Below, piece by piece: positions 3,114 through 54,796 of a stretch of DNA of 64,000 nucleotides (positions are counted from its first letter, which is position 1; each line of letters starts with the position of its first letter). The stretch covers positions 62,001 through 126,000 of the forward strand of contig JALCCG010000019.1 of assembly GCA_023212695.1 (NCBI GenBank). The letters run 5' to 3'. Under the pieces are notes generated by a model. That model was not told where the DNA came from. It made no database searches and saw only the letters and a program-made list of their open reading frames with translations. The DNA is from Sporisorium sorghi (lineage: Eukaryota; Basidiomycota; Ustilaginomycetes; Ustilaginales; Ustilaginaceae). Position numbers and translations under genes: made by a program.

Positions 3114-3280
3114 TGCTAAAATAGAAATGTAAATTACTTTTCTTTTTTTGTTCCTAGCATGCGCTTAAGGAACGTTCTTAATTAGAATCACACTTTAACA
3201 ATAGTGGACTCAAATACCGCAGGGTACATTCCGTCAAAAACGGTTTGTTTGGGTCTTTATTGTTAAGGTGTGATTTTTTT
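3114..3280 (+). promoter_or_regulatory. Class B leader (copy B10), no intact gene behind it
   Basis: Extended -10 (TG at 3114, TAAAAT 3117-3122). Two-tier hairpin 3150-3173: outer GTTCC/GGAAC, inner AGC/GCT, loop ATGC. A long terminator follows (3186-3280), then TCACAACCCA at 3290-3299 and a good ribosome site (GAGGAGG near 3323). No start codon follows; the frame there stops after about nine codons. The gene it served appears to be lost. Confidence 0.75.
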
Positions 3281-3484
3281 GTGCCTTATTCACAACCCAT
3301 CATAAGGTTCCCCTAGTCCAATGAGGAGGTTATCTTAAGAAAATAAATCACCAAGAATTTTAGCTTGTAGATAAAATGGAAGAACAGATCATAAACCATT
3401 ATTAAGAAGGATTATAACTTAATCTATATTAAACCGAAGCGGGATGAGTTCTCCATGAGCAGCAGTTTCTCTATAGATTATGTT

Positions 3485-3532
3485 AAAGGAGCTGTCTTTT
3501 CTGTTTATACAGAAAGGCAGCTCCTTTCTTGT
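3485..3532 (+). terminator. Strong hairpin before the membrane protein gene
   Basis: Arms 3485-3494 and 3518-3527 (AAAGGAGCTG with CAGCTCCTTT), extended by an inner CTTTTCTGT/ACAGAAAGG stem, then TTTCTTGTTTC. Either a terminator for the lost B10 gene or an attenuator for the gene at 3594. It lacks the class A loop. Confidence 0.6.
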
Positions 3533-3593
3533 TTCTCGAAGGTGAACTCGTATTGCTACAATTGAAAGAAAAGACAAGGTGGAATACTGAAGG

Positions 3594-4487
3594 ATGATAA
3601 TATTCAATCGTTTAGGTCTTATAAAACGGAATAATTTAATGATAATCGCTTTTTTGCCTATTGTTCTAATCTTATACCTAATTGCATTAATACTTTATGA
3701 TTACTCTAAATCTTACATTAATTTCGAATGGTATTGGGGATTGTTATTGCTATTTGGTCTCTGGGGCGGGTTAATTACCATCCTGGGACTCAAAGGATGG
3801 AAGCTCATATACTGGTGCAGCATTCCTGTTTTTCTTGCAAGTATGTTTGTAACCATTATTGATCATGGTACACCGTCAAGTGGAGTTACATCAGTGTTAT
3901 TCATTACTCTATGTGCGCCTGTAAGCACGATAATTGGCGTGGCTCTTCAAATCGCAAGCCGTATACTGAATGGTTCCAATTCTGCATCTGAAAAAAAGGA
4001 ACCGAGGAAATTTTGGATTGGGAATAATGAAAGTTTAACTATAAAACACTTGTTTTTATCGATACCATCTAAGCATAGTAAACTCATCTATGTTCAAGTT
4101 TTATGGGTGAGTTCTTTAATGGCTATCATCATTAATTTAATCTCGGTTGCGAAAATTCATGACGAAACAACTTTTATAAAAGACTTATTACTAAGTGTCA
4201 TTCAAGCTTTAATTATAGGCACCATCGGTTACAAAGGATGGAAGTCATTGTATATAGGCGCCTTAATTGGACTAATTATAAATGGTTTATTAACGATTGT
4301 AAGTTTAATCTTTCCCGCCACGAAGATTAGTCAATTATTTCTTTCGATCGAATACTGGCTTTATCAAATCCTTGGTGTGGATTTAATGACATATCTATTC
4401 TGGAATTCAGGAATGAGCTGGCCGATTTTATTAGGAATTTTATTAGGCGGAGTTTTTTTAATAATACAAATAAGAAGAAGGAACTAA
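3594..4487 (+). CDS. Polytopic membrane protein, 297 aa
   Basis: About seven to eight hydrophobic segments arranged as two similar halves: both contain a GxKGWK(L/S)xY motif (LKGWKLIYW near 63, YKGWKSLYI near 210), suggesting internal duplication. A hydrophilic stretch (about 125-150) separates the halves. I do not recognise the family. The ATG follows AAGGTGGAA and GAAGG. It may be attenuated by the hairpin at 3485. Confidence 0.7.
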   Translation: MIIFNRLGLIKRNNLMIIAFLPIVLILYLIALILYDYSKSYINFEWYWGLLLLFGLWGGLITILGLKGWKLIYWCSIPVFLASMFVTIIDHGTPSSGVTSVLFITLCAPVSTIIGVALQIASRILNGSNSASEKKEPRKFWIGNNESLTIKHLFLSIPSKHSKLIYVQVLWVSSLMAIIINLISVAKIHDETTFIKDLLLSVIQALIIGTIGYKGWKSLYIGALIGLIINGLLTIVSLIFPATKISQLFLSIEYWLYQILGVDLMTYLFWNSGMSWPILLGILLGGVFLIIQIRRRN

Positions 4488-4583
4488 TGAAGGTTTTTGG
4501 AATTTGTGGTTGAATAGGTGAATTGCAAATCCAGATTACGAGAATTTGGATAAACAAGAAAGGAAAGGAATGAATTTTGAGTA

Positions 4584-4856
4584 ATGGATTTTCCTGTGAT
4601 AACCATTTCGGCGCATGCAACGCGAAATACACTGACTGAACTAATAAATGAGTTCATACGTATTGAAAAATCAACAACTGGCTTGGAATATCAACAAAGA
4701 TCAAATTTCGTTCGTGGTCAAATAGCAGTCATCACGTCTTTGATTAATGATATATGGGATAGAAAACACCAACAGAGCTATTATGCTTATCTAAATTATT
4801 TGGTTCAAAAATACTCACTTCAAGGCGTTTGGAGAATCGTTGAACTTGGAAATTGA
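4584..4856 (+). CDS. Hypothetical small protein, 90 aa
   Basis: A soluble helical protein without recognisable motifs. The nearest purine-rich stretch (AAAGGAATGAA) lies rather far from the ATG, so the start is uncertain. It is followed by a weak inverted repeat near 4898-4928 shared with the convergent gene at 4929. Confidence 0.5.
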   Translation: MDFPVITISAHATRNTLTELINEFIRIEKSTTGLEYQQRSNFVRGQIAVITSLINDIWDRKHQQSYYAYLNYLVQKYSLQGVWRIVELGN

Positions 4857-4928
4857 GCAGATAATTTCAACCATATAATCCGAATACCCATAATGAAAAA
4901 GAGCCCTCTTATAAGCAGGCCCTCTTTC

Positions 4929-5240
4929 TTAAGTATCTCTGGCTACACGTAATTGTTCCGACAGGGCGATGATTTCATTGTGAATTTCAGATCTTCGCAT
5001 GTCAGAAACCTCAGAATTATATTGATCATACAGTGCTATTAACAAATCTAAACATGTGAGTTCTATTTTCTGCTCTTCAGATAACTCGGTGGTTTTATAA
5101 TCTATTTCCTTAAGTCTCAATGAATTATATTTTAGTTGATACTCTTTTTGTTCAACGGGATCATGATGCCGGTGAGCTAAAAACAATAACTGACCTAGCG
5201 TTCGTTTAAATTCAAGGTAGTTCTCAGCACTCTTCACCAT
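4929..5240 (-). CDS. Hypothetical helical protein, 103 aa
   Basis: A charged, helix-rich protein with no signal or membrane segment. The minus-strand ribosome site AGGGAGG lies just upstream of the ATG. It heads a minus-strand block of small genes extending to 6525. No function can be assigned. Confidence 0.65.
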   Translation of the reverse strand: MVKSAENYLEFKRTLGQLLFLAHRHHDPVEQKEYQLKYNSLRLKEIDYKTTELSEEQKIELTCLDLLIALYDQYNSEVSDMRRSEIHNEIIALSEQLRVARDT

Positions 5241-5325
5241 AGAACAGCCTCCCTAGTGCTTTACTTATTTATGTATAAATGCATATTAGGTTAGTTTCAT
5301 TATATTATATGTTTTTGTTCAATAC

Positions 5326-5371
5326 AAAAAAGAGCCTGCTACATCCTTAAAGGGATGAGCAGGCTCTTTTT
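5326..5371. terminator. Bidirectional terminator
   Basis: A near-perfect stem (AAAAAGAGCCTGCT with AGCAGGCTCTTTTT) flanked by A-run and T-run, usable on both strands. On the minus strand it ends the 49-aa gene, whose stop codon overlaps it. Confidence 0.85.
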
Positions 5372-5519
5372 ATGATTGATCATTTGTTTCTTTACGTTTA
5401 CGTATTAGATTTTTTATTTTTAATCCGAATTCGTCCTTTTCCATTGCACTATTTGACAAATGATATAATCGAAAGAACCTATGAATTAGATTATCCAGAT
5501 CTTCATTTGATTTATCCAT
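5370..5519 (-). CDS. Small acidic/basic protein, 49 aa
   Basis: Starts MDKSNEDLDNLIHRFFRLYH and ends with a basic tail (NLIRKRKETNDQS). The minus-strand ribosome site TTAGGAGG lies 9 nt from the ATG, which is strong support for this short gene. Function unknown. Confidence 0.6.
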   Translation of the reverse strand: MDKSNEDLDNLIHRFFRLYHLSNSAMEKDEFGLKIKNLIRKRKETNDQS

Positions 5520-5606
5520 GCATATTTCCTCCTAAAAACTAGAGTCCCAACTAATTGATATGTATGTGGGGATTAATTTACATAATCCCCATTGGGCCGA
5601 CTTTCA

Positions 5607-5978
5607 TTATTGTTCCTTATTATTCTTATTATCGACGGGAGTATCTTGCATAAACTTCTTATAAAGCTTATCTACTTCTGCGGTCTCCTCCGGATCCCCA
5701 GATCTAGCTAGGGCGTTTTTGGCCAAGAAAGAGAAACCATTGAACCCGGCAAGAACAGCTGTACCTACTCCTTTAACCAGCGTGGTAGGTTCGAGAAGAG
5801 CGGTAGCAGCTAAAGCAGCAAAACCTCCGATGAAGAAATCACCTAGAATACCCAAATTAAGATAGCGTTTCTTACCCACCTTTTTAATATACGGGAAGAG
5901 CACACCGTCAATTCGTGCAGAAACAACAGCATTGACAATTCCACCAATTGCAAAAGCAATAAGCAAAGTCACAGTCAT
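5607..5978 (-). CDS. Small membrane protein (DUF4257-like)
   Basis: A 123 aa protein with three hydrophobic stretches (about 3-22, 45-65 and 68-88) and a charged C-terminus ending DNKNNKEQ. The layout of N-terminal GG-rich helix, KKRYLNLGILGDFFIGG loop and second helix pair resembles the DUF4257 family of Bacillales; function unknown, and a holin-like role is only a guess. The hairpin at 6022-6064 lies between it and the upstream lipoprotein gene. Confidence 0.65.
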   Translation of the reverse strand: MTVTLLIAFAIGGIVNAVVSARIDGVLFPYIKKVGKKRYLNLGILGDFFIGGFAALAATALLEPTTLVKGVGTAVLAGFNGFSFLAKNALARSGDPEETAEVDKLYKKFMQDTPVDNKNNKEQ

Positions 5979-6021
5979 TCAAAACCACCTAACCTCTCAT
6001 TTATTTGTTAGAAAATAAATA

Positions 6022-6064
6022 AAACCACTACCGAGTTAAAAATTCTGAACTCAACAGTGGTTTA
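6022..6064 (-). terminator. Intergenic terminator/attenuator hairpin
   Basis: Outer AAACCACT/AGTGGTTT and inner GAGTT/AACTC stems, with a T-rich flank on the minus strand. It ends the lipoprotein transcript or attenuates the gene at 5978. Confidence 0.65.
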
Positions 6065-6123
6065 TTCTTAGTGTGAATACAATCCAACACAACCATGATT
6101 ACATTTTACTGACTCTGCACCAT

Positions 6124-6525
6124 CTATTGTTCTACTAACTGAACACTGTCATCACTCAAGATGGATTTTCCCTCATCAGAAGAAGTTCTATAAACTTCAA
6201 TACTCCACCCAAATTCTTCTTCAGATGAATTCTTCTCTTTCGCCCACTTTGTTTTGACAACCACATCGTCCAAAACTCCAAGTTCATGGAAGTCTTGTGG
6301 GGTTATCAACAATTTGTGTCGATCTCCATTAGCCAATTCTAATCCCATGACATAATCATATTCATCCTTGTACAGTCGGATAACTTTACCCACTTCTTTT
6401 GTATATCGGTACTCAAATTCTCTCTTCTGAGGATTGTCCATAGCTGTATATTTGTTGTTACAGGCCGTTATAGAAAAAATTATTGTAAAGATTAAAAGGA
6501 TACCGAAAAGCTTGTTCCTAAGCAT
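6124..6525 (-). CDS. Putative lipoprotein, 133 aa
   Basis: Signal peptide with lipobox ITAC (Cys near residue 22), then a soluble mixed alpha/beta domain (KVIRLYKDEYDYVMGLELAN). The start is the ATG at 6525, because AAGGAG lies 9 nt upstream; a TTG 9 nt earlier is less likely. It is expected to be anchored outside the membrane. Its transcript begins with a class B leader on the minus strand. A second lipoprotein, at 46465, has a similar size and plan. Confidence 0.8.
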   Translation of the reverse strand: MLRNKLFGILLIFTIIFSITACNNKYTAMDNPQKREFEYRYTKEVGKVIRLYKDEYDYVMGLELANGDRHKLLITPQDFHELGVLDDVVVKTKWAKEKNSSEEEFGWSIEVYRTSSDEGKSILSDDSVQLVEQ

Positions 6526-6622
6526 TAATAGCAACTCCTTATTTAACTACTTTCCTTCCAAAAACAATTAGGGTTTTCACACGCCTTATCCGAATCACCC
6601 TCATAGTCGTTTTAAATCAAAA

Positions 6623-6729
6623 TAAAAAAGGCCATACGACCGAATTCTAAAAGAAGGAGCTAAATGGCCCTTGCCAAGTAGCATCGAATCCATAAGGATT
6701 TTAGAATCGGTTAGTCGCATGACCTACCG
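6623..6729 (-). promoter_or_regulatory. Class B leader on the minus strand (copy B11)
   Basis: Read on the minus strand: hairpin 6729-6708 with outer CGGT/ACCG, inner GTC/GAC and loop ATGC, then a terminator (6670-6623) ending in TTTTTT, then the lipoprotein ribosome site. A TATAAT lies upstream near 6752. The only copy found on the minus strand; it shows that the leader moves with the gene and not with strand-wide context. Confidence 0.75.
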
Positions 6730-6803
6730 TAGAAGAGAATTATTTATTTGCTTATATTATAGCTATATTTAATTCATGAATCCAGTAAATTCTTTTGATT
6801 TAT

Positions 6804-6903
6804 TTGACAATTTCATTTATGAAAAGCATAATCAAAATTATAAGATCAACACCAGGGGAGCACCCTGAATATACAACCAAGAAGGTTGTTATTCAGGGTG
6901 CTC
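6804..6903 (+). promoter_or_regulatory. Class A leader (A1): promoter and attenuator
   Basis: TTGACA (6804-6809), 17 bp, CATAAT (6827-6832). Small hairpin AGGG-GAGCA-CCCT at 6854-6866. The terminator (6858-6903) re-uses the GAGCACCCT as its 5' arm against AGGGTGCTC. Upstream of the gene at 6944. Confidence 0.8.
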
Positions 6904-6943
6904 TTCTAATGTTAAAAACTAAGTAGAAGGGAGCTAGTAGGAT

Positions 6944-7219
6944 TTGAATAACGTCAATGATACCAAGGGACACCTTATAAAAAGAAAATTATTTATAATA
7001 ATCTCTTTGATTTTTGCAATTAGCATGGGAATGGGTTCTGCTTTACTTCATTACCGATTTCCTACTCTTTCATCTCTGATAATTGCCCCTTTCGTAGGTA
7101 TCGGTATCACTGTTTATTTTGTCTTTCTGTCGAAATTCAATCAGAAAGTGACCGATCATTATGCTTTGATATTAATAATGATCATATTCTCATTTATCTC
7201 GACCTTAATAATCTATTAG
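6944..7219 (+). CDS. Small membrane protein, 91 aa
   Basis: Three predicted membrane helices (about 15-34, 44-62 and 70-90). Starts at a TTG about 10 nt after AGAAGGGAG. Expressed from the class A leader at 6804. No family recognised. Confidence 0.65.
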   Translation: MNNVNDTKGHLIKRKLFIIISLIFAISMGMGSALLHYRFPTLSSLIIAPFVGIGITVYFVFLSKFNQKVTDHYALILIMIIFSFISTLIIY

Positions 7220-7230
7220 AGAGGTGGCAT

Positions 7231-7787: not shown

Positions 7788-7916
7788 AAAAAAACCCCCT
7801 CAATACATCTTTCATCAATGTGATCGTAACACAATCACACTCAATTCGATAAACATAACGGATCAGTAAACATCGATAGCACATCAGTGTTTATATCCTC
7901 GTTTAACCTCTATTTA

Positions 7917-13515: not shown

Positions 13516-13518
13516 AAG

Positions 13519-17902: not shown

Positions 17903-17952
17903 CTTCGTCGTCCATCAAATCTAAAAACTTATAACAAGGGAAGGTGCTTTTG

Positions 17953-18864
17953 ATGACAAAACGAACTGTTTCACGACATATCGATGAGGAACTGAATGAG
18001 CAAATGGTAACATGGTTATCACTTCGAGAAGCGAAAAACCGTAAACGGGTACTTTATGCTAAGGCGGTTGGCTTGGAGGAGATTTCCCTTGGTGATCTCA
18101 GAATGGAGTGCTTAAAGCTAAATTATGAAGGGGTTTACGGCTATCTTCCCCGAAACAAAATCGATGATTATGAATTCAAAGGTCTCCATAATTTTATGGG
18201 TAAAACTTTTGAGTTTGTAGTAGAGACCCTTATAACAGAACCAGACGAGCAAGTGGGTACATTTGTAGCTAACCGGATTGAAGCTCTGAAATTATCAGCA
18301 AATCGATTCTGGAACAATGCTCAGGTAGGAGAGATCTACGAGGCTTTTATTCGTGGTATTGACCCTTACCATCTTTACATCCTAGTGGAAGGTGTACAGG
18401 TTAAGTTGCATCGTTCTGAGGTAGGTTACAGTTTGTATGACGATCTTCGTGAAGTATATAGTATCGGGGATAGCATTGAAGTGAAGATTCTCGAACTCGG
18501 AAAACCCAATGAGGAGAATTCTGAAGGCACGCTTCAAGTAAGTGCTAAGATTCTTAATCAGGATCCATGGGACAATATCGGCAATTACAAGGAACGAATG
18601 TTTTATCTGGCCGAGCTCAAGCGCATTCATCCAGTTCATGGGATGTTCTTAGAACTTGAGCCGGGGCTGAGTGTGTTGACTTATTTTCCTGCCGGTACAC
18701 GAGGGAGAAAGTTTAAACCAGGTGATGAATTGGAAGTCAAAATTAAAACAATCGATGTAGAAAAGCGGGAGATCTTTGGCACCATTGTACTCCCACGAAA
18801 TAAAATCGGGGCAAATAATCCTTCATTTAGGAATAGTGGTATCCGTCGAGGCAACAGAGGTTAA
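17953..18864 (+). CDS. S1-like RNA-binding-fold protein, 303 aa
   Basis: Soluble protein with three OB/S1-like segments: about 40-105 (GVYGYLPRNKIDD), about 118-200 (QVGEIYEAFIRGIDPYHLYI ... GDSIEVKILEL) and about 215-285 (GMFLELEPGLSVLTY ... PGDELEVKIKTIDVEKREIF). The G.v.eg..v.....G..v.v.v..id pattern is that of S1 domains, which bind RNA or ssDNA. Start at ATG 17953 after GGGAAGGTG; a GTG inside that site is not used. Basic C-terminal tail (RRGNRG). Three bases separate it from the next gene, with which it is co-transcribed behind leader A6. A candidate for the leader-binding factor, by inference only. Confidence 0.65.
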   Translation: MTKRTVSRHIDEELNEQMVTWLSLREAKNRKRVLYAKAVGLEEISLGDLRMECLKLNYEGVYGYLPRNKIDDYEFKGLHNFMGKTFEFVVETLITEPDEQVGTFVANRIEALKLSANRFWNNAQVGEIYEAFIRGIDPYHLYILVEGVQVKLHRSEVGYSLYDDLREVYSIGDSIEVKILELGKPNEENSEGTLQVSAKILNQDPWDNIGNYKERMFYLAELKRIHPVHGMFLELEPGLSVLTYFPAGTRGRKFKPGDELEVKIKTIDVEKREIFGTIVLPRNKIGANNPSFRNSGIRRGNRG

Positions 18865-20070: not shown

Positions 20071-20248
20071 TCATGCTTATGCTTCATTTTATATGGTACA
20101 CTTGTTCAACGATAAGGAAAAAATCAGTTGGATACTACTGAACGGGAATGAGAAACGCGGCGTCAATGTAGTTTTGACTTAATCGATAGCTCTTCTTTTT
20201 CCCATAGAATTATGATATTATATCAATAAATCAAATGATTTTTTATGG

Positions 20249-20367
20249 GTCTCGCCAAGCGGCATAAGGACTATATGATGTAGCTATTTCTTGTAAGCGA
20301 AGAATGGCCATTTAAGGTATTAACACCTCTTAAAAGGGAATTGTTAATGCTTTAAATGGCCTTTTTT
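20249..20367 (+). promoter_or_regulatory. Class B leader (B1) of the primase gene
   Basis: Hairpin 20249-20271: outer GTCT/GGAC, C, inner GCC/GGC, loop AAGC, ATAA on the 3' side. Terminator 20305-20367 (GGCCATTTAA with TTTAAATGGCC, TTTTTT). TCACAACCCA follows at 20376-20385. Confidence 0.85.
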
Positions 20368-20417
20368 GGCTTCTATCACAACCCATTTGAGTATTCTCCA
20401 ATGAAAGGAAGGATTAC

Positions 20418-21731
20418 ATGAAGTATTTGTCTCAAGAAACGATTGATATGGTCAAGAAGGTATCTGTGTACGAACTCGCAGATGTATTGGGGTATGATCT
20501 TAGGAGGTCCGGAAACCATTGGAATCTCAGGTGCCCGAACCCAAATCATCAGGAAAAAACACCGGATACTTATATCAAAATTTCTACTGGGTATTATAAG
20601 TGTTATGGTGGAGGTGGCTGCGGACCCGAAGGTGATGCAATCAATTTTTACAGTTGGCATCACTTTGAAGGTTATGATTCAAAGAAAGATTTTTATCGTT
20701 CAGTTGAGGGAATAGCGAAACTGATGGGGATCCCGGTTCAATATCGAGATGGTACCATCTTGATGGATGAATCGCGACCTACCTACGTCCCAAGGGACAG
20801 ACCCAAGGTCCCCGTAATTCCGGCTGCTTCTGCTGATGTCTGTGATCGAACCTATCGAAGATTCTTAGATTTGTGTCCCGTTTTTGATGAACATTTAGAC
20901 GAATGGCTTGGATCTAAACGTCAGTATACACGAGAACAAATTGGTGCTATAGGTCTAAGATCCATTCCTAAAACACTGGACCATGCAAAAAAAATTGTTG
21001 ATACACTGATATCCGAAGGTTATCAAATTGAGAGAGTACCTGGCTTTACTCAGTTTCTTAGGAATGGCGGAAATCCTAATCGCGAAGAGGACTGGTTTTG
21101 GTTAATAGCAGGTAAGGGGAAATATTATATTCCGGTACGCGATGACTTGGGACGAATTATTCGTCTTCGCATCAGAACAAATTACGATAATAAGAAGAAA
21201 TATGTCTGGTTCTCTTCAGCTCCTGTAAACGAAGGAGATTTTATCAGAAGAGGAGGAGCTGAATCGGGTGCGCCTATTAATGTTGTACTCCCTTCAAAGG
21301 TTATGGCCATCTGGGAACCAGGAACTGATATATCTGCAATTTATAAAATTCAGAAAGCACTTATTATTGAAGGAGAGCATAAGAGTTATATTTCAGCGGA
21401 TCGATTAAATATGCTTGTTTTTGGTATTCCTGGGGTGGGTAACTTTCGTGAGGTGCTCCCACTACTTAAAAAATATGGGATAAAGGAAGTTGCAATCGCG
21501 TATGATATTGACGCGTTTCATGATGAGAAAAAACCTACCGGGAAAAATGAACAAGTATTTAAACAACTTGTTAACTTGGGAAAACAGTTAATCAGTGAAG
21601 AGGGCATACATACCGAATTATGGGCCTGGAATCCGAAGGACGGTAAAGGATTGGATGATCTTCTTATAAATTTAAAATTTCCTGTTGTTACGGATCTAAG
21701 AACAAACGAACGACTACCATTTGCAATTTAA
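20418..21731 (+). CDS. Plasmid DNA primase (CHC2 zinc finger, Toprim-like)
   Basis: 437 aa, starting at ATG after AAAGGAAGG. Zinc ribbon of the CHC2 type: Cys39, His44, Cys62, Cys68 (LRCPNPNHQEKTPD ... YYKCYGGGGCG). The C-terminal half has a Toprim-like core as in DUF3854 proteins: ALIIEGEHKSYISADRL with Glu near 318 and VAIAYDIDAF near 360. It would synthesise primers for plasmid replication or for the transferred strand. Shorter than DnaG, with no DnaB-binding domain. Transcribed behind a class B leader. Confidence 0.85.
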   Translation: MKYLSQETIDMVKKVSVYELADVLGYDLRRSGNHWNLRCPNPNHQEKTPDTYIKISTGYYKCYGGGGCGPEGDAINFYSWHHFEGYDSKKDFYRSVEGIAKLMGIPVQYRDGTILMDESRPTYVPRDRPKVPVIPAASADVCDRTYRRFLDLCPVFDEHLDEWLGSKRQYTREQIGAIGLRSIPKTLDHAKKIVDTLISEGYQIERVPGFTQFLRNGGNPNREEDWFWLIAGKGKYYIPVRDDLGRIIRLRIRTNYDNKKKYVWFSSAPVNEGDFIRRGGAESGAPINVVLPSKVMAIWEPGTDISAIYKIQKALIIEGEHKSYISADRLNMLVFGIPGVGNFREVLPLLKKYGIKEVAIAYDIDAFHDEKKPTGKNEQVFKQLVNLGKQLISEEGIHTELWAWNPKDGKGLDDLLINLKFPVVTDLRTNERLPFAI

Positions 21732-21830: not shown

Positions 21831-23084
21831 ATGAATTATTACACTATAAAAGCAAGAGAACATGAAAGATTGTTTTCAAAAAAAGCAAAAGAAGGCATGA
21901 TGCTTACCACAGGAAATGGAAAAGTGAATTTCATTGAGAGTATCACCAACAAGTATGTTTTCTTTAAAACTGAACAAAGCAAAAATCTAATTAAAGTTCC
22001 ACGGGAAAAAATAAGAAGTGCTATAGAGTATTTACTCTACAGAAGAGCGGTTACACGAGAGAAGTTGGGTGATTTCTACAAATTTAATAGTTTTCTCATG
22101 GGGTTGCTCCGTCAAATGTTCGTACATTTGAGTGACCTAGCCAAGATGAAAAAAAGTTTAGGTAAGAGAAGCATCATGCGTTTAGTACTTAAAGGTACAC
22201 GTTTTTATTTCGCCGGAGCTGATAGAAGTCCTGGTGATCTTGCCATGATACAGCAGCATGGAGGACGGTTTGTATTGTTCTCTTATTGGAATCTTCGAAC
22301 GGACAAACACGAAACATGGAAATATCACATCAAAAAATTGGGTTTAAAGGTTCTTTTAGATTCTGGTGAATATAGCATGCATCGATTACGAAAAAGGATC
22401 GATGTCGTCCAAGATCGATTGCAAACTATGCAGGAAGGGACGAGCAATTGGTCAAAACAAATCTCTGAACTACGCAAATTAGAGGCTAAAAGCCAACATC
22501 CTGTGAGAATAACGGATTACGCAGAGTTTATCTTAAGACATCAGTCTGTTTTGTTTGATGTATTTAACCTAGATAAAACAGGAGATCCGGAGGAATCAAT
22601 GTTTAATCTGAATTATCTGTATAGAAGAGGGATCAAGGCAATTCCAATTTGGCATCCACAATCCCCCATGGATGCTCTTGATACTCTTGTAAGGGATGGG
22701 AGGGGGTTTGATGTCATCGCGATTGGTGGCCTATTAAGCCTAAAAGAAGAAGAGAGGCACAGAATAGTGAACACAGTCATGGAGCGTTACGGGGAGCATC
22801 AAAATTTTCATCTCTTAGGCTGCAGCAGCCCCCTTATTTTTAAAGGGGAAACTTTTCAGTGTGACTCTACTGGGGCGCTTATGGGAAGAAGATACATGAC
22901 GGTTATAACTGAGCATGGTCATATAAAAACAGATGAAGTTTACCCTGAACAAAAATGGACAGAAGAAAAATGTCTTGCTTTCAATATACAAAAGTTGTCT
23001 AGTCTTGAAGATTATCATACTACTCAGCAGCTAGAGATACTAATGCCACCGGCGCTAACATCGGAAGCAATTACGTTATTCTAA
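21831..23084 (+). CDS. TGT/DpdA-like base transglycosylase candidate
   Basis: 417 aa, ATG after AAAGGAG. Features recalling the tRNA-guanine transglycosylase superfamily: VLLDSGEYSM near 175-184 (family DSGGF, nucleophile-type Asp177), DYAEFI and FDVFNLDKTGDPEES near 225-255, DVIAIGGLLS near 300, and CDSTGALMGRRYM near 344 (family DSTxWl.g.R.G, Asp345). The zinc Cys cluster of bacterial TGT is not evident. Phage DpdA enzymes of this superfamily insert 7-deazaguanine into DNA. N-terminal 110 residues are basic and unrelated. The assignment is by eye and could be wrong; no queuosine-precursor genes are present in the window. Confidence 0.45.
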   Translation: MNYYTIKAREHERLFSKKAKEGMMLTTGNGKVNFIESITNKYVFFKTEQSKNLIKVPREKIRSAIEYLLYRRAVTREKLGDFYKFNSFLMGLLRQMFVHLSDLAKMKKSLGKRSIMRLVLKGTRFYFAGADRSPGDLAMIQQHGGRFVLFSYWNLRTDKHETWKYHIKKLGLKVLLDSGEYSMHRLRKRIDVVQDRLQTMQEGTSNWSKQISELRKLEAKSQHPVRITDYAEFILRHQSVLFDVFNLDKTGDPEESMFNLNYLYRRGIKAIPIWHPQSPMDALDTLVRDGRGFDVIAIGGLLSLKEEERHRIVNTVMERYGEHQNFHLLGCSSPLIFKGETFQCDSTGALMGRRYMTVITEHGHIKTDEVYPEQKWTEEKCLAFNIQKLSSLEDYHTTQQLEILMPPALTSEAITLF

Positions 23085-23543: not shown

Positions 23544-23666
23544 ATGCAAGGTTGCTATGTGGTTATTGTAAATGATTCACAAGGTAAACGTCAAATTTTT
23601 CTGCGTTTATGTTGTTCAAATGAAATTATCTTGGCTTTTGATGGTGTTTTGATGGTTTGGGGATAA
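23544..23666 (+). CDS. Possible small protein, 40 aa
   Basis: MQGCYVVIVNDSQGKRQIFL then a short beta-rich end. It follows a TCACAACCCA element, as other class B genes do, and its YVVIVNDSQGKRQ resembles the IVYVDNTGKITQR of the SOS gene at 2877. The ribosome site (CCAAGGAAG) is distant. It overlaps the 3' end of the opposite-strand gene, so it may be a remnant. Confidence 0.35.
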   Translation: MQGCYVVIVNDSQGKRQIFLRLCCSNEIILAFDGVLMVWG

Positions 23667-24658
23667 ATGTGTTCATCTGCATATGCTTGTTGGTCCTTCA
23701 GATTTATATAATGTTCTTCTGCAGTGTTAGCCCATTCCGGAATATGATCCTCTGTAAATGGACGTTCAGGAATTGTAGGACAATCGAATACTGGCATTCC
23801 TTGCGTTCCGCGTTTCAAAATACGATCATACAACTCTTGTCGTTTTTCACTCTCCTTTTTCCATACATCTAAGATGACCTGACCCATACGCTGATTTGGA
23901 AATAGTTGAAACCATTTGATTCTCGGCTCTACCTCACCGTAATTGGCGAGGAAAGCCCTATCAATTTTTTTATATGTTGCCCCAGAAGAGAGCACGGCTT
24001 TCATTAAATAATAGATACGTCGTAAGATAAATACTTGTGCAGGAATGAGGAAGGTAGACCATCCAGAATACCAATGCTTTAAATCGTTCAAATAAGCCAT
24101 AATAACAAATGATAGAGTAAGACCAAAAATATATCCTGTTATTTCTGCTGAGAGTTTCGGACCAATTACTTTTAGCAGATTCGGCCGTTTTTCAGGTGTA
24201 AATGTTGTGTAATTAACGTTATTAAAGATCCGATTGCGAAAATGATCTACATTATAACGATATGTATAATCAAAGACCTGTGCTCTTCTCGATTGATGAA
24301 AAGCCTGAGGTGGGAAGATCATGTAGTACAAATGTAATGGCGATATGTAGGGTGTAGCGTTCCATCTTTCAACTTCCATATCAATGTGTCTCTGACGGAT
24401 ACTTGAAGCAACTTCTACATATAGCCGCTTAGATCCGGTAAAAAAGATCGTGACAATTAAAGCACTGAACACTAATATATTTGTACTAAAAAGAGAATAC
24501 AATTGATGAAGATTAGAATTGTAATTTGTAAAAAGCTGAAGATTTGGGAAGCTTTTTTCGATTATAAATGCAATTGGATAGGTAGCGATTGTAAGACCAC
24601 TTACCCAAAAAAGCAAGCTTGAGAAATTAAATTTATTTTTCGTTTTCACTGTTATCAC
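23591..24658 (-). CDS. Membrane protein with cytoplasmic tail, 355 aa
   Basis: Helices at about 13-33, 52-70, 170-190 and 200-215 surround a basic loop rich in Arg/Tyr, followed by a ~130-residue soluble C-terminal part (KIISFEQHKRRKI end). The size and plan recall accessory membrane proteins of conjugative elements, but I recognise no family. It is transcribed away from the FEN gene; the shared upstream region holds the dyad at 24726. Confidence 0.65.
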   Translation of the reverse strand: MITVKTKNKFNFSSLLFWVSGLTIATYPIAFIIEKSFPNLQLFTNYNSNLHQLYSLFSTNILVFSALIVTIFFTGSKRLYVEVASSIRQRHIDMEVERWNATPYISPLHLYYMIFPPQAFHQSRRAQVFDYTYRYNVDHFRNRIFNNVNYTTFTPEKRPNLLKVIGPKLSAEITGYIFGLTLSFVIMAYLNDLKHWYSGWSTFLIPAQVFILRRIYYLMKAVLSSGATYKKIDRAFLANYGEVEPRIKWFQLFPNQRMGQVILDVWKKESEKRQELYDRILKRGTQGMPVFDCPTIPERPFTEDHIPEWANTAEEHYINLKDQQAYADEHIYPQTIKTPSKAKIISFEQHKRRKI

Positions 24659-24768: not shown

Positions 24769-24871
24769 CTCGGCGTCAGGCGACATACCGAGTTTTATCT
24801 TAGAACCACGATTTAAATGTGTCTAGTAAATGACATTGTCATTTCTTTGCCCATTTATCGTGGTTCTTTTT
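24769..24871 (+). promoter_or_regulatory. Class B leader (B9) of the FEN nuclease gene
   Basis: Hairpin 24769-24792: outer CTCGG/CCGAG, C, inner GTC/GAC, loop AGGC, ATA on the 3' side. Terminator 24802-24871 (AGAACCACGAT with ATCGTGGTTCT, TTTTTG). Confidence 0.8.
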
Positions 24872-24915
24872 GTTATGTCGCTTATCAATTAACCACAAAT
24901 AGGGAGGGAACGAGA

Positions 24916-26316
24916 ATGAAACTACGTGCAAAAATGCCTGTTAAGGCCACGGAGAAAAGCTTGAGAGTATGTTTAGAAAGTGTTTATCGACAATGGAAGA
25001 GCAGAGCTGGAGAAGTAAGAAAAGCTGAGTTGACAGATGATGGATGGTTTGAGATTCTCATAGGACCTAACCTTCATCCACAAGAATTTGGATACATCGA
25101 GCCAGCTAAGAATCCCATCTCACAAGAGGGAAATATATTTCAAGTATCCATAATAGGTAGTACCTCAGAGAAATTAAAAGCTATCTTTCAGGAATTATCA
25201 ATGAAGATTATAGAGCACGAAGTAGAAAGTGGTTATATTTCTGAAGTTTTATTATGCAGCGGTGAAGGAATTCAGTTTCAATTGGTTGAAGCAGATTGGC
25301 AGCCAATGCAGTCTGGAATGAATCATTTAACTCAAGTTGGTTCTCAAGCGGCGGTACCTTTATCTGAAAATGAAATAAAACTAACTTCAACAGATAGAAG
25401 TACAGTAACCCCTCCAACAATGTCCTCATCTCTTTTAATCATTGATGCAATGAACTTATTAGCAAGATGTTACTGGGCAACTGCTTATTCTAAAGAAGAG
25501 CATGAGTTAATGAAGTCTTCAAAAGGGAAATTTACGAATGCGATTAAACCACTGACCGAGAAGTTGGTTAAAATGATTCGTAGATTTGCACCTACACATA
25601 TCGCTGTAGTATGGGATCCACCGGGAGGCCGATCTACATTGTGGAGACGAAGATTAGCAGATTTTTATAAGGCAAACAGAGATAATAAAGAAGATCCAGT
25701 ACCATTTAAGGAGCAGATAGAGACTGCAAAGTCAGTGTTTCGTGCCATGAACATTCAGCAATTCCATGTAGATACCATGGAGGCAGATGACCTAGCAGGC
25801 AGCTTATCTAAAAGGTGGTCTACAGAGATTAATGGTAATTGTCTACTCTGGAGTAACGATAAAGACTACTTTTAATTGTTGGACCCAAATATCGTTCAAT
25901 TAGTAGAAGATGAGCCATTTGATCTAAAAATGTTCATGCAGAAATATGATGGGATAACACCAACTCAATTTATAGACTACAAAGGTTATTGCGGTGATAC
26001 GAGTGATAATATTCCAGGTGTTACCGGCATTGGGCCAAAAGGTGCAATTGAATTATTAAAAACATATGGAAGTATGGAAGCAGCAGTATCCGAGATAAAT
26101 AGGAAAAAAGACGATCCAAAACTTAAGGGGGTCGAGAAAAAACTTCTCATGGGATCGGAGAGCGGGTTGTTGAGCCGGGAACTTGCAACCATTTTACTCG
26201 ATGTACCGGAAATGAAGGCAGTCGCTTGGGAGGATCTTGCCATTAAGATTAATCGTTCAGGGTATCTTGAGATGATGGCTGAATTAGAAATCGAAGTAAA
26301 AAGTAATGCTGCTTGA
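24916..26316 (+). pseudogene. 5'-3' exonuclease (FEN/PolA-N type) with an in-frame stop
   Basis: Reads through as 467 codons but for a TAA at 25873-25875. After a ~160-residue N-terminal extension of unknown type comes the FEN domain: LLIIDAMNLLAR, a helical arch with basic residues (WRRRLADFYKANRDN), MEADDLAG and SNDKDYF, then the stop, then LLDPNIVQLV and the H3TH region GDTSDNIPGVTGIGPKGA. The stop replaces the Gln expected after DKD(Y/L)(F/L), as from CAA to TAA. Metal-binding Asp residues lie on both sides. No ribosome site precedes the second half, whose first codon is TTG. Either a fresh pseudogene, a read-through product, or two cooperating pieces. ATG at 24916 follows GGGAGGGAA. Confidence 0.85.
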
Positions 26317-26352: not shown

Positions 26353-26673
<321 letters not shown>

Positions 26674-27855: not shown

Positions 27856-27997
27856 TATAATCACATATATAAGGGGATTTTGGGTTCTGCCATACGGCAA
27901 GGGCCATTAGAAAGGCACTTACACCGGTATGTTTGTTCTCACCTTTAAGGAGGGACTTTCTCAAAAGAGAACATATATGTGAGGGGTGTCTTTTTTT
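27856..27997 (+). promoter_or_regulatory. Class B leader (B3)
   Basis: TATAAT at 27856-27861. Hairpin 27883-27905: outer GGTTCT/AGGGCC (with G-U pairs), inner GCC/GGC, loop ATAC. Long terminator 27912-27997 (AAGGCAC... with ...GGGTGTCTTTTTTT; inner TTGTTCTC/GAGAACA). Confidence 0.75.
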
Positions 27998-28653: not shown

Positions 28654-28846
28654 TTCTCATAATCAATATGATGTGATATAATAAGACGCATAAATTACTT
28701 TTACTTTATTTTTTGTCTCAGGCCTGGGTCATAGAGACACTTTCAGAGATTAATTCCCAACACCTATTTTTTAAGGTGACCAAATTCTACTTTTGTAGGC
28801 ATTCTATTTGAATGGATTGGTCATGTTAAAAAGTGGGTGTTTTTTG
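28654..28846 (+). promoter_or_regulatory. Class B leader (B4), divergent loop
   Basis: Extended -10 (TGATATAAT, 28674-28682). Hairpin 28714-28739: outer TGTCTC/GAGACA, inner GGC/GTC (with G-U), loop CTGG rather than ANGC. Terminator 28759-28846 (AACACC ... GGGTGTTTTTTG). TCACAACCCA at 28859-28868. Confidence 0.75.
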
Positions 28847-28893
28847 CTTTGCTCACTTTCACAACCCAAACCACATTCAAGGAGGAATTTAAC

Positions 28894-47061: not shown

Positions 47062-47161
47062 GCTCCCGCCATGCGGCTAAAGGAGCATTTTAAGAGCGCT
47101 ATTTCAAACGCCTAATCCATTTTTCATGTCATGGAGTGGACGTTTGGAAGAGCGCTTTTTT
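47062..47161 (+). promoter_or_regulatory. Class B leader (B5) of methyltransferase 3
   Basis: Hairpin 47062-47086: outer GCTCC/GGAGC, C, inner GCC/GGC, loop ATGC, TAAA on the 3' side. Terminator 47092-47161 (AAGAGCGCT with AGAGCGCTTTTTT; inner CAAACG/CGTTTG). TCACAACCCA at 47170-47179. Confidence 0.9.
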
Positions 47162-47207
47162 GCGTTCTATCACAACCCAATCATTCCAAGTTGTAGGAGG
47201 AGAATCA

Positions 47208-48854: not shown

Positions 48855-48961
48855 GCTTCCGCCACGCGGCAACGAAGCTTTCATTTTTATTTCGCCAACA
48901 AATGGCGCCTATTTCTGTGAATTACACCTTTTATGGGTGGAATCAGATAGGCGCTTTTTTT
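48855..48961 (+). promoter_or_regulatory. Class B leader (B6)
   Basis: Hairpin 48855-48878: outer GCTTC/GAAGC, C, inner GCC/GGC, loop ACGC, AAC on the 3' side. Terminator 48904-48961 (GGCGCCTAT with ATAGGCGC, T7; CACC/GGGTG inside). A TATAAA lies upstream near 48825. Confidence 0.9.
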
Positions 48962-49972: not shown

Positions 49973-49986
49973 AAGGGAGCTTAATT

Positions 49987-52221: not shown

Positions 52222-52225
52222 ACAA

Positions 52226-52835
52226 GTGCGCCTATAAGGGCGATTAGGAATTCAGCCTTTGGCAAGGCTGCGGGAAAAGCTCATATTCATCATCCCGTCA
52301 CCAATCACTTACTTGCTCGGGGAAACCAGAGCGGGGACTGTAGCATGTGATTAAAGGTATAAGCCGTCAAAACTACTCAGATGAAGCAGAATACCAAGGT
52401 GAAAAGTGTAAACGAGGATAAAGGCTGTATTGCTTGAATGATAGTTCGAGGGGATTTAACATCGTCCGTATCGAAACGTAGTTGAAACGGTATGTGGCAT
52501 CTGAGAGTGGCATCTGAGACAGTGTCTGATTGTTTGGCACAGTCCTCACGAGCCGAGGCCTCCCAAGCCCAATAAGGGTTAAAGAACGAAAGTCATATCC
52601 GACATTACACAAGCTATGTTCCTAATCGTACTAAATGGGGATTACCTAAGTGGGACGGCCATCTTTGGCTATGAGGGATAAACGCAACAGGGTTATGGCC
52701 TCTGAATATCCCATATGGTAACGGAGTTCTAGTAGTAGTCGGAGCGTGGGAAAACCACAGTACACTTATACCGAGGGGTATAAGACACTAATAAAACAAA
52801 AAAGGATCGAGCGATATGCCCAAACCTTTTCGGGG
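52226..52835 (+). mobile_element. Group II intron remnant (5' part only)
   Basis: Begins GTGCGCC, the group II 5' consensus (GUGYG), five bases after the DndC-like stop codon. The following ~600 bp is dense in short stems and GAAA/AAAC motifs, as in a group II domain I, and has no gene. No reverse-transcriptase frame and no clear domain V or VI is present before the sequence changes to the fragment at 52840. Truncated and presumably inactive. Confidence 0.55.
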
Positions 52836-52839
52836 AAGA

Positions 52840-53004
52840 TTACTTACGGATTTCATTTCGGCTACCTGTTAGCTCGATGGCTTTGTAAGAACTAATACCT
52901 AGAATTGGATTCAGGATGTTTTTGAGTAGATCAGTGTTAATTCGAAAACTCTTACCTGAGTGGGTGTAGCCTGAAAACAATACTTTTTGAGGCTCCATTT
53001 TCAT
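52840..53004 (-). pseudogene. Fragment of a fourth AbrB-like methyltransferase N-terminus
   Basis: 54 codons, ATG 53004 with AAAGGA upstream. The THSGKSFRINTDLL part aligns position by position with TYNGERIYIDKALL of methyltransferase 2, and the lengths before and after match. It stops where the intron remnant begins, so the rest of the gene was probably lost in that rearrangement. GYTHSGKS looks like a Walker A motif but, given this alignment, is probably chance. An inverted repeat CCTTAATT/AATTAAGG (53025-53052) lies in its promoter region. Confidence 0.5.
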
Positions 53005-53062
53005 ATTCTCACATCCTTTAGTGGCCTTAATTCATTCTAACATAAATTAAGGAATATCAGTG

Positions 53063-53155
53063 ATGGCGAAGGAGAACAGTTCATCTGGATTAATACAAAA
53101 TTGGGAAGGAGCGAGAGGCTCTATGAGAAATCCAAGTGTAGTCAATGATCTTTAG
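53063..53155 (+). CDS. Possible small protein, 30 aa
   Basis: ATG after AAGGA, encoding MAKENSSSGLIQNWEGARGS and 10 more residues. It could equally be a gene fragment left by the rearrangement next to it. Confidence 0.25.
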   Translation: MAKENSSSGLIQNWEGARGSMRNPSVVNDL

Positions 53156-53300
53156 ATATTCACTAAATAGAGATCAGATGGTAATCTTGTCTTTTTAAAG
53201 ATAATGGGCAATTTCCAAACCTATTCTGCAATTCGTTATAAATTGGCTTGAAATCAGGATTGGATTCTTCTATTATAGAGTTAGTTATATTTTTTGAAAG

Positions 53301-53397
53301 CCTCTTGCCATGCGGCATAAAGAGGAATTTACTTGTTGAAATACGCCCTGTGGGTGACTCAAGCATACATTGCTTATGTCATTCGCAGGGCTTTTTT
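53301..53397 (+). promoter_or_regulatory. Class B leader (B7) of the clamp gene
   Basis: Hairpin 53301-53325: outer CCTCT/AGAGG, T, inner GCC/GGC, loop ATGC, ATAA on the 3' side. Terminator 53345-53397 (GCCCTG with CAGGGC, TTTTTT; AAGCA/TGCTT apical stem). Confidence 0.9.
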
Positions 53398-53467
53398 GCG
53401 TCCAAATTGGTGAAGTTAGCTGCACTAAATTTTATTTTGATGATTCTACTAATTAGGAGGAATGGAT

Positions 53468-54631
53468 ATGTTTAAGATTAAATCGAGTGTGATTCAAGCT
53501 GTTGTATCAGCCATGGCAAAGAGTGTAAAGGACTCAGGTATAGGTGATAGGAATGTATACATTAAGAATATCGGTAACGATATAGTATCCTTCTACTTCA
53601 CTTCACTTGATCTTTCAGCTGAGAAACGAATTAGTGCTGAGGTTAAGGGGGATTTCTTTGCAGCGACGAGTATGAAGGAGCTTGCTATCAAGGTTGCAGC
53701 TTTGCCGAGTCAAGAAGAAATCGAAGTGAACTTTATCCGAAAAGGGAACGGACAGTTTCTGCAGTTGGTTTGGGGGAGTAACGGAAGACGAAGTGAGATG
53801 ACGGTTACTGTCCTTAATGAGGAAACAGAATTTCTAGAAGTCCCTCTGCCAGAAGAAAAGGTGCTCTGGGGTCCAAAGGTGTTATCTCATCTTGTAAACA
53901 AGTTTAAGGGTTTTACTGTAAAATCATCAAGCAATGACGCTAGAAATTCACCTGTTCTCTCTGGAATCATGATATCTCAGAATACCTCAGGTCACTGCAT
54001 TCTACGTGCGACTGACCGTCATAACTCAGTCACTTTTATTTCAAGAGATTATAAGTGGCTAGAGAAGGATGTAATAATTGACACGTCTTATTTACATGGT
54101 ATTTCTAATCTCATTCCTTCTGACTGTGAAGTGGAAGTTGGAATTAACGAGCAAGCGAGCTTGGTAATTTTTCAGACACCGGATACAACTTGTGTATGCC
54201 GAGTTCTGAACGGAAAATATCCTGAGATCGATAAGATTTACGATCACAATGTAGAGTGTAAGTATATATTTGATCGTCCTGAGCTTATGGAGCTGTGTTC
54301 CAGGGTTTTGAAAATTGTTGATACAGGAGCAAAATTAGTGAAATTTGAGACGAGGAAAAATCTGGTATTTGCAGTTGTTCCAAATGTCTTGGAGCAGCAA
54401 TTGGGAGCAACTGTTGAAGGGCTTAAATGGTCCTTTGCTGTGAATGCAGAAAAATTGCTTGAATGCGTAAAGTTTTTTGAGGCAGAGGATGAAATTACAC
54501 TTTATATCAAAGATCCGGGCAATAAACCAATCACAATTGGTTCAGATGAGGAGCCTGACATCCAAATGGCAACTACTCCTTATAAGGTCAATGGAATTAA
54601 TGCAGGTAATAAGTCCAAAGTGATGGTTTAA
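53468..54631 (+). CDS. dnaN: DnaN-like sliding clamp
   Basis: 387 aa, close to the usual ~375. ATG 53468 lies 7 nt after AGGAGG; the ATG at 53462 is too close. Beta-clamp hallmarks: LSGIMI ... LRATDRHNSVTFI near 175-200 and CRVLNGKYPEIDKI near 250, with three similar domains. It would encircle DNA and tether a polymerase, here perhaps one adapted to the element. Plasmid copies of dnaN are uncommon. It is divergent from chromosomal clamps, with a longer C-terminus (GNKSKVMV). It forms a DNA-metabolism set with primase and FEN nuclease, all behind class B leaders. Confidence 0.85.
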   Translation: MFKIKSSVIQAVVSAMAKSVKDSGIGDRNVYIKNIGNDIVSFYFTSLDLSAEKRISAEVKGDFFAATSMKELAIKVAALPSQEEIEVNFIRKGNGQFLQLVWGSNGRRSEMTVTVLNEETEFLEVPLPEEKVLWGPKVLSHLVNKFKGFTVKSSSNDARNSPVLSGIMISQNTSGHCILRATDRHNSVTFISRDYKWLEKDVIIDTSYLHGISNLIPSDCEVEVGINEQASLVIFQTPDTTCVCRVLNGKYPEIDKIYDHNVECKYIFDRPELMELCSRVLKIVDTGAKLVKFETRKNLVFAVVPNVLEQQLGATVEGLKWSFAVNAEKLLECVKFFEAEDEITLYIKDPGNKPITIGSDEEPDIQMATTPYKVNGINAGNKSKVMV

Positions 54632-54641
54632 TTGTCATCGC

Positions 54642-54796
54642 TTGTCATCAGATTGTAGCGGTGGTAAAATGTATATATAAACAATGCTTAATTTGCCCTC
54701 CGTCAAGCGACTTATGAGGGTTCATTTTAACTAGTCATTCACCCCCAAAGGTGTATTTGTGTTTTTTTGACACATTTCCACTTTTGGGGGTTTTTT
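54642..54796 (+). promoter_or_regulatory. Class B leader (B8)
   Basis: TTGTCA (54642-54647), 17 bp, TAAAAT (54665-54670). Hairpin 54696-54720: outer CCCTC/GAGGG, C, inner GTC/GAC, loop AAGC, TTAT on the 3' side. Terminator 54741-54796 (CCCCCAAA with TTTGGGGG, TTTTTT). Confidence 0.9.

What the first reader, a model, noticed from the sequence alone, without database searches (positions are those of the whole stretch)
3114..54796. Eleven class B leaders: two-tier ANGC hairpin plus long terminator
Copies at 3150, 6708 (minus), 20249, 24769, 26572, 27883, 28714, 47062, 48855, 53301 and 54696. Each has an outer stem of 4-6 bp, one unpaired 5' base, an inner 3-bp stem (GCC/GGC, GTC/GAC or AGC/GCT), loop ANGC in nine copies (ATAC and CTGG in two), and 1-4 unpaired bases on the 3' side. 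The outer stem sequence is different in every copy yet always pairs. A long terminator follows 10-40 nt later, before the ribosome site. The hairpin does not overlap the terminator, so its action would be at a distance, as for a protein-loading or processive antitermination element.
Basis: partly seen in the sequence, partly recalled or inferred. Interest (0 to 1): 0.93.

Follow-up and report, generated by a model that had tools for sequence, protein, structure and literature searches.

The report
Shared RNA switch on Bacillales megaplasmids
Large plasmids of soil bacteria carry many copies of the same small RNA hairpin just ahead of built-in transcription stop signals, apparently so that one unknown factor can switch many plasmid genes, DNA replication and DNA modification genes among them, at once.

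Summary
The hairpins are real. All 11 copies are present. The full contig (137 kb, P. glucanolyticus) holds 21. One contig and five plasmids (one read in part) from three host families gave 75 leaders: two-tier hairpin (loop ANGC in 72), long terminator, usually a promoter-like site and a gene start. In a scan open to any 4-nt loop, the commonest loop in all six sequences is of type CANGCG. The leader is kept at orthologous genes (12 of 14 primase, 5 of 6 clamp genes). In P. periandrae, not used for the model, 17 of 17 genome hits lie on one contig. No Rfam family matches at its cut-off.

The hairpin does not base-pair with the terminator, so it probably binds a trans-acting factor. ANTAR proteins and the NusG paralog LoaP are excluded as general factor. 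A plasmid-encoded S1-like protein is the best candidate, untested. Whether the factor modifies polymerase, holds the mini-hairpin or promotes termination is open. I rate it a new RNA family, a new variant of a known kind of control.

The parts
3150..3173 (+). hairpin I, GTTCC-T-AGC-ATGC-GCT-TAA-GGAAC
   Evidence: 27.6 bits; in the model
3185..3276 (+). leader terminator, dG -41.5
3291..3299 (+). CACAACCCA motif between terminator and gene
6708..6729 (-). hairpin I, minus-strand copy (4-bp outer stem, 2 nt unpaired on each side, loop ATGC); held out of model R1 and not found by it
6624..6706 (-). leader terminator of the minus-strand copy, placed by eye (the script chose a wrong hairpin here)
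   Evidence: sequence
20248..20272 (+). hairpin I before the DUF3854 primase gene, loop AAGC
   Evidence: 31.9 bits; in the model
20306..20364 (+). leader terminator, dG -30.6
20377..20385 (+). CACAACCCA motif
20418..21731 (+). DUF3854 primase-like gene; its leader is kept in 12 of 14 plasmids or contigs looked at
24769..24792 (+). hairpin I before the 5'-3' exonuclease gene, loop AGGC
   Evidence: 23.3 bits; in the model
24802..24869 (+). leader terminator, dG -27.0
26572..26595 (+). hairpin I, loop AAGC
   Evidence: 21.6 bits; in the model
26607..26670 (+). leader terminator, dG -29.3
26611..26623 (+). example of the mini-hairpin CACTT..AAGTG that shares the terminator 5' arm
27883..27905 (+). 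hairpin I, deviant loop ATAC, held out of the model (11.7 bits, E 6.4)
27911..27993 (+). leader terminator, dG -24.0
28715..28738 (+). hairpin I, deviant loop CTGG, held out of the model and not found by it
28759..28842 (+). leader terminator, dG -38.1
28860..28868 (+). CACAACCCA motif
47062..47086 (+). hairpin I before a C5 cytosine methylase gene, loop ATGC
   Evidence: 38.3 bits; in the model
47093..47158 (+). leader terminator, dG -28.7
47171..47179 (+). CACAACCCA motif
48855..48878 (+). hairpin I, loop ACGC
   Evidence: 24.9 bits; in the model
48904..48957 (+). leader terminator, dG -23.0
53301..53325 (+). hairpin I before the DNA polymerase III beta-like (clamp) gene, loop ATGC
   Evidence: 35.5 bits; in the model
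53345..53394 (+). leader terminator, dG -32.2
54696..54720 (+). hairpin I, loop AAGC
   Evidence: 31.3 bits; in the model
54741..54793 (+). leader terminator, dG -29.2
17944..18864 (+). candidate trans factor (inference only): three-domain ribosomal-protein-S1-like gene; a homologue is on 15 of 15 plasmids whose DUF3854 match has at least 34% identity

Best explanation
Each leader is an attenuator of a plasmid-wide regulon. Transcription starts at a sigma-A-type promoter, the hairpin (loop A-N-G-C in a C-G closed 3-bp inner stem, stacked through a small internal loop on a variable outer stem) forms first, and by default polymerase stops at the long terminator just ahead of the gene. A trans-acting factor, most likely encoded by the plasmid, binds the hairpin, reading the loop and the two-tier shape but not the outer-stem letters, and lets polymerase pass the terminator. 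All leaders, and so the primase, clamp, exonuclease, DNA methylases and many unknown genes, are switched together. Shown: the element, its architecture, conservation, concentration on plasmids, and no pairing with the terminator. Inferred: the bound protein, default termination, and the sign of the effect. Open: whether the factor rides on polymerase (LoaP or N-like) or stabilises the mini-hairpin that shares the terminator 5' arm (ANTAR-like).
For: 75 leaders in one contig and five plasmids; in the 67 well-resolved ones the terminator is 46-92 nt long with dG -21 to -48. A -10-like hexamer lies in a fixed 12-nt window in 54 of 75 against 57 of 1000 random places; the 54 leaders outside C112 were taken from scans that already asked for a -10-like site and U-tract, 39 of them also for a ribosome site, so the 13 of 21 on C112, not filtered so by script, is the fairer figure. 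60 of 75 have a ribosome-site-like sequence and an ORF of 40 aa or more within 160 nt after the terminator. The commonest loop hexamer is of type CANGCG in all six sequences in a scan open to any 4-nt loop. The leader is kept at orthologous primase (12 of 14) and clamp genes (5 of 6). In P. periandrae, not used for model R1, 17 of 17 hits at E 1 lie on one contig. The hairpin shows no cognate complementarity to the terminator, while the positive control (arm against arm) does. The parallel LoaP system works from a small leader hairpin before a terminator (passages of PMC12691694).
Against: No factor identified. No expression, pausing or termination data. The mini-hairpin allows a purely local switch. 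The hairpin could instead stabilise the mRNA 5' end, as proposed for short inverted repeats upstream of ardC on plasmid p576 (figure legend, PMC8708921). Loop variants (ATAC, CTGG, AAGA, AAAC, TTGC) show that the loop is not absolute. Two primase leaders of 14 and one clamp gene of 6 lack a clear hairpin, and R2 found nothing in 10 of 16 further plasmids.
Confidence: 0.55

Rival explanations
1. ANTAR-like dual-hairpin switch: a factor bridges hairpin I and the mini-hairpin that shares the terminator 5' arm, and holds the arm away from the terminator. Action is local, not processive.
For: The terminator 5' arm pairs better with its own downstream mimic than with those of other leaders (0 of 100 swaps). 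Mean z 1.11 over 67 leader terminators against 0.11 over 217 other terminators of the same sequences (at least one leader terminator with other boundaries is among the 217). EutV uses two small hairpins, the second alternating with a terminator (passages of PMC3369931).
Against: No ANTAR domain on seven plasmids or in P. glucanolyticus. The mini-hairpin has no A1/G4 hexaloop and its loop is not conserved (by eye). Its stem is short, and only 19% of leaders reach 5 of 100 shuffles singly (3% of controls).
Confidence: 0.25
2. Pro-termination: a plasmid repressor binds the hairpin and strengthens termination in the resident state; on entry into a new cell the repressor is absent and the establishment genes are expressed in a burst.
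For: The leaders control primase, ssb (next gene in two plasmids), clamp, exonuclease and DNA methylases, the kind of genes expected to be needed on entry (inference). Transient expression of pLS20 establishment genes is presumed (passages of PMC8708921).
Against: No data on sign. The known hairpin-plus-terminator leader of this layout (LoaP) is activating.
Confidence: 0.15
3. RNA-only or host-factor effect: the hairpin touches polymerase, NusA or NusG directly (as put or EAR do), or simply protects the mRNA 5' end.
For: No plasmid factor is proven. Conserved position close after the promoter-like site.
Against: A constitutive RNA-only device makes a terminator just behind it pointless. Whole-genome searches hit chromosomes only rarely (the last two with strict filters).
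Confidence: 0.15
4. LoaP (NusG paralog) is the factor.
For: Same layout (PMC12691694). The P. glucanolyticus genome has one NusG paralog.
Against: The P. periandrae draft genome, with 17 hits on one contig, shows only one NusG gene, of core type. No NusG-family protein over the cut-off on 9 of 9 plasmids (one sub-threshold match broken by stops). The LoaP hairpin is of UNCG type.
Confidence: 0.04
5. Chance hairpins or repeated copies of a mobile element.
For: The bare loop pattern is not rare; model R2 also hits the strand opposite to 16S rRNA.
Against: Loop specificity, position, orthologous conservation, and outer stems that differ from copy to copy.
Confidence: 0.01

Closest known systems
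LoaP / dfn-mln leader hairpin of Bacillus velezensis
   Same: Small hairpin in a 5' leader followed by an intrinsic terminator, regulon of more than one operon.
   Different: Loop UNCG there, ANGC here; two operons there, 15 and 21 leaders counted on pPPM1a and on the contig here; LoaP not found on nine plasmids or in one carrier genome.
ANTAR dual-hairpin antiterminators (EutV, NasR, AmiR)
   Same: A first small hairpin plus a second one that alternates with the terminator.
   Different: Loops without A1/G4, second loop not conserved, no ANTAR protein on seven plasmids or in P. glucanolyticus.
conAn of plasmid pLS20
   Same: Termination control of plasmid genes in Gram-positives.
   Different: conAn sits at the head of one long conjugation operon (passages of PMC8955417); here many dispersed operons, several of them DNA-metabolism genes.
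pLS20-family establishment-gene regulatory sequences EGeRS1/2
   Same: Repeated upstream sequences with inverted repeats before establishment operons of a plasmid.
   Different: EGeRS1 is 400-600 bp and, for ardC, lacks a strong sigma-A promoter (passages of PMC8708921); here a short leader with promoter-like site and terminator.
lambda nut/boxB with N (recalled, no call)
   Same: Short hairpin near the promoter read by its loop; different lineages use different hairpins.
   Different: No boxA or N counterpart was looked for here; a GNRA-like fold of the ANGC loop is only a guess.

Membership tests
LoaP-dependent leader | UNCG-type tetraloop hairpin | tested here: not met
   Loop ANGC in 72 of 75 leaders; UNCG stated in PMC12691694
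LoaP-dependent leader | LoaP gene in the carrier | tested here: not met
   One NusG gene only, of core type, in the P. periandrae draft; none over cut-off on 9 plasmids; a paralog is present in P. glucanolyticus
LoaP-dependent leader | Hairpin-dependent readthrough of the terminator | not testable with these tools
   Needs a reporter or in vitro transcription
ANTAR target | ANTAR protein in the carrier | tested here: not met
   0 of 7 plasmids and none in P. glucanolyticus; one in the P. periandrae genome
ANTAR target | Two hairpins with hexaloops A1 and G4 | tested here: not met
   Hairpin I loop CANGCG; mini-hairpin loops vary, read by eye
ANTAR target | Second hairpin alternates with the terminator | tested here: met
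   Covarying mini-hairpin on the terminator 5' arm; computed only
Any Rfam 15 family (EAR/epsC and Bacillus-plasmid included) | Match at gathering score | tested here: not met
   0 in the window; only group II introns in 140 kb of relatives. In evalue mode on 9 kb the best match (E 4e-4, 32 bits against a cut-off of 90) is to a microRNA precursor over the terminator at 20298-20369, not the hairpin
conAn | ConAn1 protein and conAn2 RNA at the head of a conjugation operon | not tested
   The NAR 2021 paper is not held; layout differs
BglG/SacY RAT | RAT hairpin that partly overlaps the terminator | tested here: not met
   Hairpin I does not overlap or pair with the terminator; BglG-type proteins were not searched for

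The most novel reading that the evidence does not exclude
A plasmid-borne, regulon-wide antitermination code: plasmid lineages across Bacillales put the same hairpin on many leaders and pair it with a cognate plasmid-encoded RNA-binding protein, possibly the S1-like protein of the mobilisation operon, so that one event such as conjugative entry turns on the replication, modification and other genes together. Other lineages (Halobacillus, Priestia) use the same layout with a different hairpin, as lambdoid phages do with boxB and N.
Probability: 0.3. Interest if true: 0.88.

Novelty: new variant of a known kind. Interest (0 to 1): 0.76.

Why it matters
I found little on the regulation of large Gram-positive plasmids of this type in the searches made. 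A conserved RNA element on many leaders of one plasmid predicts a single master regulator and gives a direct assay for it. It would extend leader-hairpin antitermination beyond NusG paralogs and ANTAR proteins and offer a compact, transplantable control part.

Tried and rejected
LoaP as the factor: rejected as general factor. ANTAR: rejected. Base-pairing of hairpin I with the terminator: rejected by swap test. Upstream leader against the 5' arm and linker against the arms: no clear signal (76, 14 and 50 of 100 swaps). Rfam: none at cut-off (107 in evalue mode). Genus-wide R1 search, strict filters: 4 of 100 Paenibacillus genomes had a hit at E 0.05; the P. glucanolyticus genome had 12, the other three one each, about what chance gives. 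Class-wide R2 search, strict filters: 31 of 398 genomes hit; the multi-copy loci that I looked at (five genomes) are, by eye, 16S rRNA read on the wrong strand, and of the 20 loci fetched I judged one (L167) a true leader. R2 in 16 plasmids beyond its own: 6 with a hit at E 3 (best 26.5 bits, Rossellomorea), 10 with none, P. sp. 37 and P. amylolyticus among these; the eight loci were not read. R1 in 9 plasmids with strict filters: 3 with hits, and the two Peribacillus hits were false by eye; the true Peribacillus, Sporosarcina and Alkalihalophilus copies appeared only with the open-loop scan. Held-out test of R1: of three deviant copies left out of the model, one was found at E 6.4 and two not at all. 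Terminator placement failed for copy 6708 and is doubtful for a few others; 8 of 75 leaders were dropped for weak or distant terminators. The ORF finder gave no ORF for 6 of 75 and a start beyond 160 nt for 9. The 355-aa protein at 23591-24658, also conserved, was set aside because its sequence looks like a membrane protein (by eye). Structure prediction was not used.
Full report
Where the window lies. It is bases 62001-126000 of a 137,428-base contig, here C112, in a 23-Mb assembly. Its DUF3854 gene is 100% identical to that on contig NZ_BIMC01000015.1 of Paenibacillus glucanolyticus NBRC 15330. The contig has type IV secretion genes, a Replic_Relax protein, an S1-domain protein, a primase-like protein, a beta-clamp-like protein and several DNA methylases, so I take it for a plasmid. 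The nearest complete relatives listed are two P. polymyxa plasmids, pPPM1a of strain M1 among them.

The observation. All 11 hairpins are there. A scan of the whole contig and reading of the hits gave ten more leaders of the same build, one of them seen next to a CACAACCCA motif, so 21 in all. On 18 of the 21 (three deviant copies held out) 143 of 144 pair cells are standard pairs and 7 of 8 pairs change on both sides; sliding the partner gives 31-47%. Because the rows were partly picked for pairing, this count is partly circular. Two tests are less so. First, a scan that allowed any 4-nt loop but asked for two tiers, a -10-like site, a U-tract and a ribosome site gave 176 places in six sequences; 69 have loop CANGCG, and the commonest loop hexamer in each sequence is of that type. 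Second, leaders of the orthologous primase gene, chosen by gene only, show a two-tier hairpin and terminator in 12 of 14 cases, judged by eye; the P. sp. 37 and P. amylolyticus leaders are nearly the same sequence, the L. fusiformis inner stem is imperfect, and the two without a clear hairpin are a Metabacillus plasmid (26% protein identity) and one whose gene start I could not place.

Reach and specificity. Model R1 finds 15 places in pPPM1a, one of them (16.4 bits, minus strand) doubtful. In Sporosarcina, Peribacillus, Alkalihalophilus and Lysinibacillus plasmids the motif has one unpaired base on each side instead of one and three to four; 39 such copies, found by the scan, gave model R2. 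In the whole genome of P. periandrae, not used for the model, 17 of 17 R1 hits at E 1 lie on one 341-kb contig; in P. glucanolyticus 18 of 19 lie on the home contig, but these are the model's own sequences. Of 100 Paenibacillus genomes only the P. glucanolyticus one has more than one hit. Loop variants: ATAC and CTGG in the window, AAGA in Peribacillus and Rossellomorea, AAAC in two Lysinibacillus plasmids, TTGC in P. sp. 37 and P. amylolyticus, and ATGA in candidate places of P. sp. 37 and Rossellomorea.

Anatomy. Over 75 leaders (21 of C112, 15 of pPPM1a, and 13, 9, 12 and 5 of the Lysinibacillus, Sporosarcina, Peribacillus and, from 80 kb only, Alkalihalophilus plasmids) a -10-like hexamer lies in a fixed window in 54 of 75 against 57 of 1000 random places. 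For the 54 leaders outside C112 a -10-like site was part of the scan they were taken from; on C112 the figure is 13 of 21. The stretch before the hairpin is 51% T; the terminators of the 67 well-resolved leaders are 46-92 nt. In 60 of 75 a ribosome-site-like sequence and an ORF of 40 aa or more follow within 160 nt. On C112 and pPPM1a 17 of 36 leaders have CACAACCC within 60 nt after the terminator, against 30 occurrences in all on both strands there; in the other four 20 of 39 have AAACTTTTT. I have no explanation for these.

Fold tests. In the whole-leader MFE hairpin I and the terminator form together in 66 of 67. Swapping leaders within a plasmid shows no cognate complementarity of hairpin I with either terminator arm (97 and 91 of 100 swaps reach the observed value), while arm against arm does (0 of 100). 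The terminator 5' arm also matches a mimic of the 3' arm in the 14 bases that follow its first nine (0 of 100 swaps), so a local mini-hairpin overlapping the terminator seems to be under selection; the trait is weak or absent in other terminators of the same sequences (mean z 1.11 over 67 against 0.11 over 217).

What it controls. Primase (DUF3854), with ssb next to it in pPPM1a and ssb and dnaN next to it in Lysinibacillus irui; the clamp-like gene (leader in 5 of 6; not seen in the 300 bases before the Peribacillus gene); 5'-3' exonuclease; C5 and N4/N6 methylases; a PAPS-reductase-domain protein; and many unknown genes.

Which factor. No NusG-family protein over the cut-off on nine plasmids; the P. 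periandrae draft has one NusG gene only. No ANTAR protein on seven plasmids or in P. glucanolyticus. Among the proteins shared by C112, pPPM1a and the Sporosarcina, Peribacillus, Lysinibacillus and Alkalihalophilus sequences, the S1-like protein is the only one with a general RNA-binding domain among those I scanned; one shared protein (C112 14894-16264) was not scanned. Homologues are on all 15 plasmids whose DUF3854 match has at least 34% identity. It aligns with the middle S1 domains of ribosomal protein S1. It is also on plasmids in which I found no ANGC hairpin, so this is a lead, not a proof.

A second lineage. In Halobacillus and Priestia plasmids with diverged homologues the same layout carries another hairpin, GC-stem-U-rich loop-stem-AGCGG, in five and four leaders, picked by eye from 11 and 8 listed places. 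This fits a coevolving recognition pair.

Known systems. Nearest in layout are LoaP (passages and part of the introduction of PMC12691694) and ANTAR (passages of PMC3369931); membership in both fails on tested features. Searches of the held library listed no paper that I recognised as describing this element; only passages of six papers were read. The table in PMC2864571 (passages) lists a Bacillus-plasmid motif, RF01691, which Rfam did not match in the window or in 140 kb of relatives. Most subscription papers and bioRxiv preprints are not covered.

Verdict. A real RNA family, not in Rfam and concentrated on plasmids, that most likely serves a trans-acting regulator of leader termination; mechanism and factor unproven.

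Noticed in passing
   Followed up: no
L202, L203, L205, L207 (Halobacillus plasmid), L208, L213 (Priestia plasmid): Same leader layout with a different hairpin (TTGC-stem-U-rich loop-stem-AGCGG) in five and four leaders (by eye).
   Followed up: partly
window 3291, 20377, 28860, 47171: CACAACCCA just after leader terminators: 17 of 36 leaders of C112 and pPPM1a; AAACTTTTT after the terminator in 20 of 39 leaders of the other plasmids. Unexplained.
   Followed up: partly
window 24817-26316: The 5'-3' exonuclease is split into two same-frame ORFs by a stop codon at 25873-25875 (N-terminal and C-terminal Pfam domains in separate ORFs). Described only.
   Followed up: no
window 810-1927, minus strand: Transposase ORF with rve domains and a second small ORF beside it, looks like an IS3-type insertion (type recalled).
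   Followed up: no
window 21831-23084: Protein with weak similarity to DpdA and to queuine tRNA-ribosyltransferases, a possible DNA-modification enzyme.
   Followed up: no
P. sp. 37 plasmid NZ_CP043762.1, around record 165000-177000: Direct repeats that look like a CRISPR array on the plasmid.
   Followed up: no
L162, L163, L169, L171, L173: The strand opposite to 16S rRNA (recognised by eye) mimics hairpin model R2, a trap for covariance searches.
   Followed up: yes
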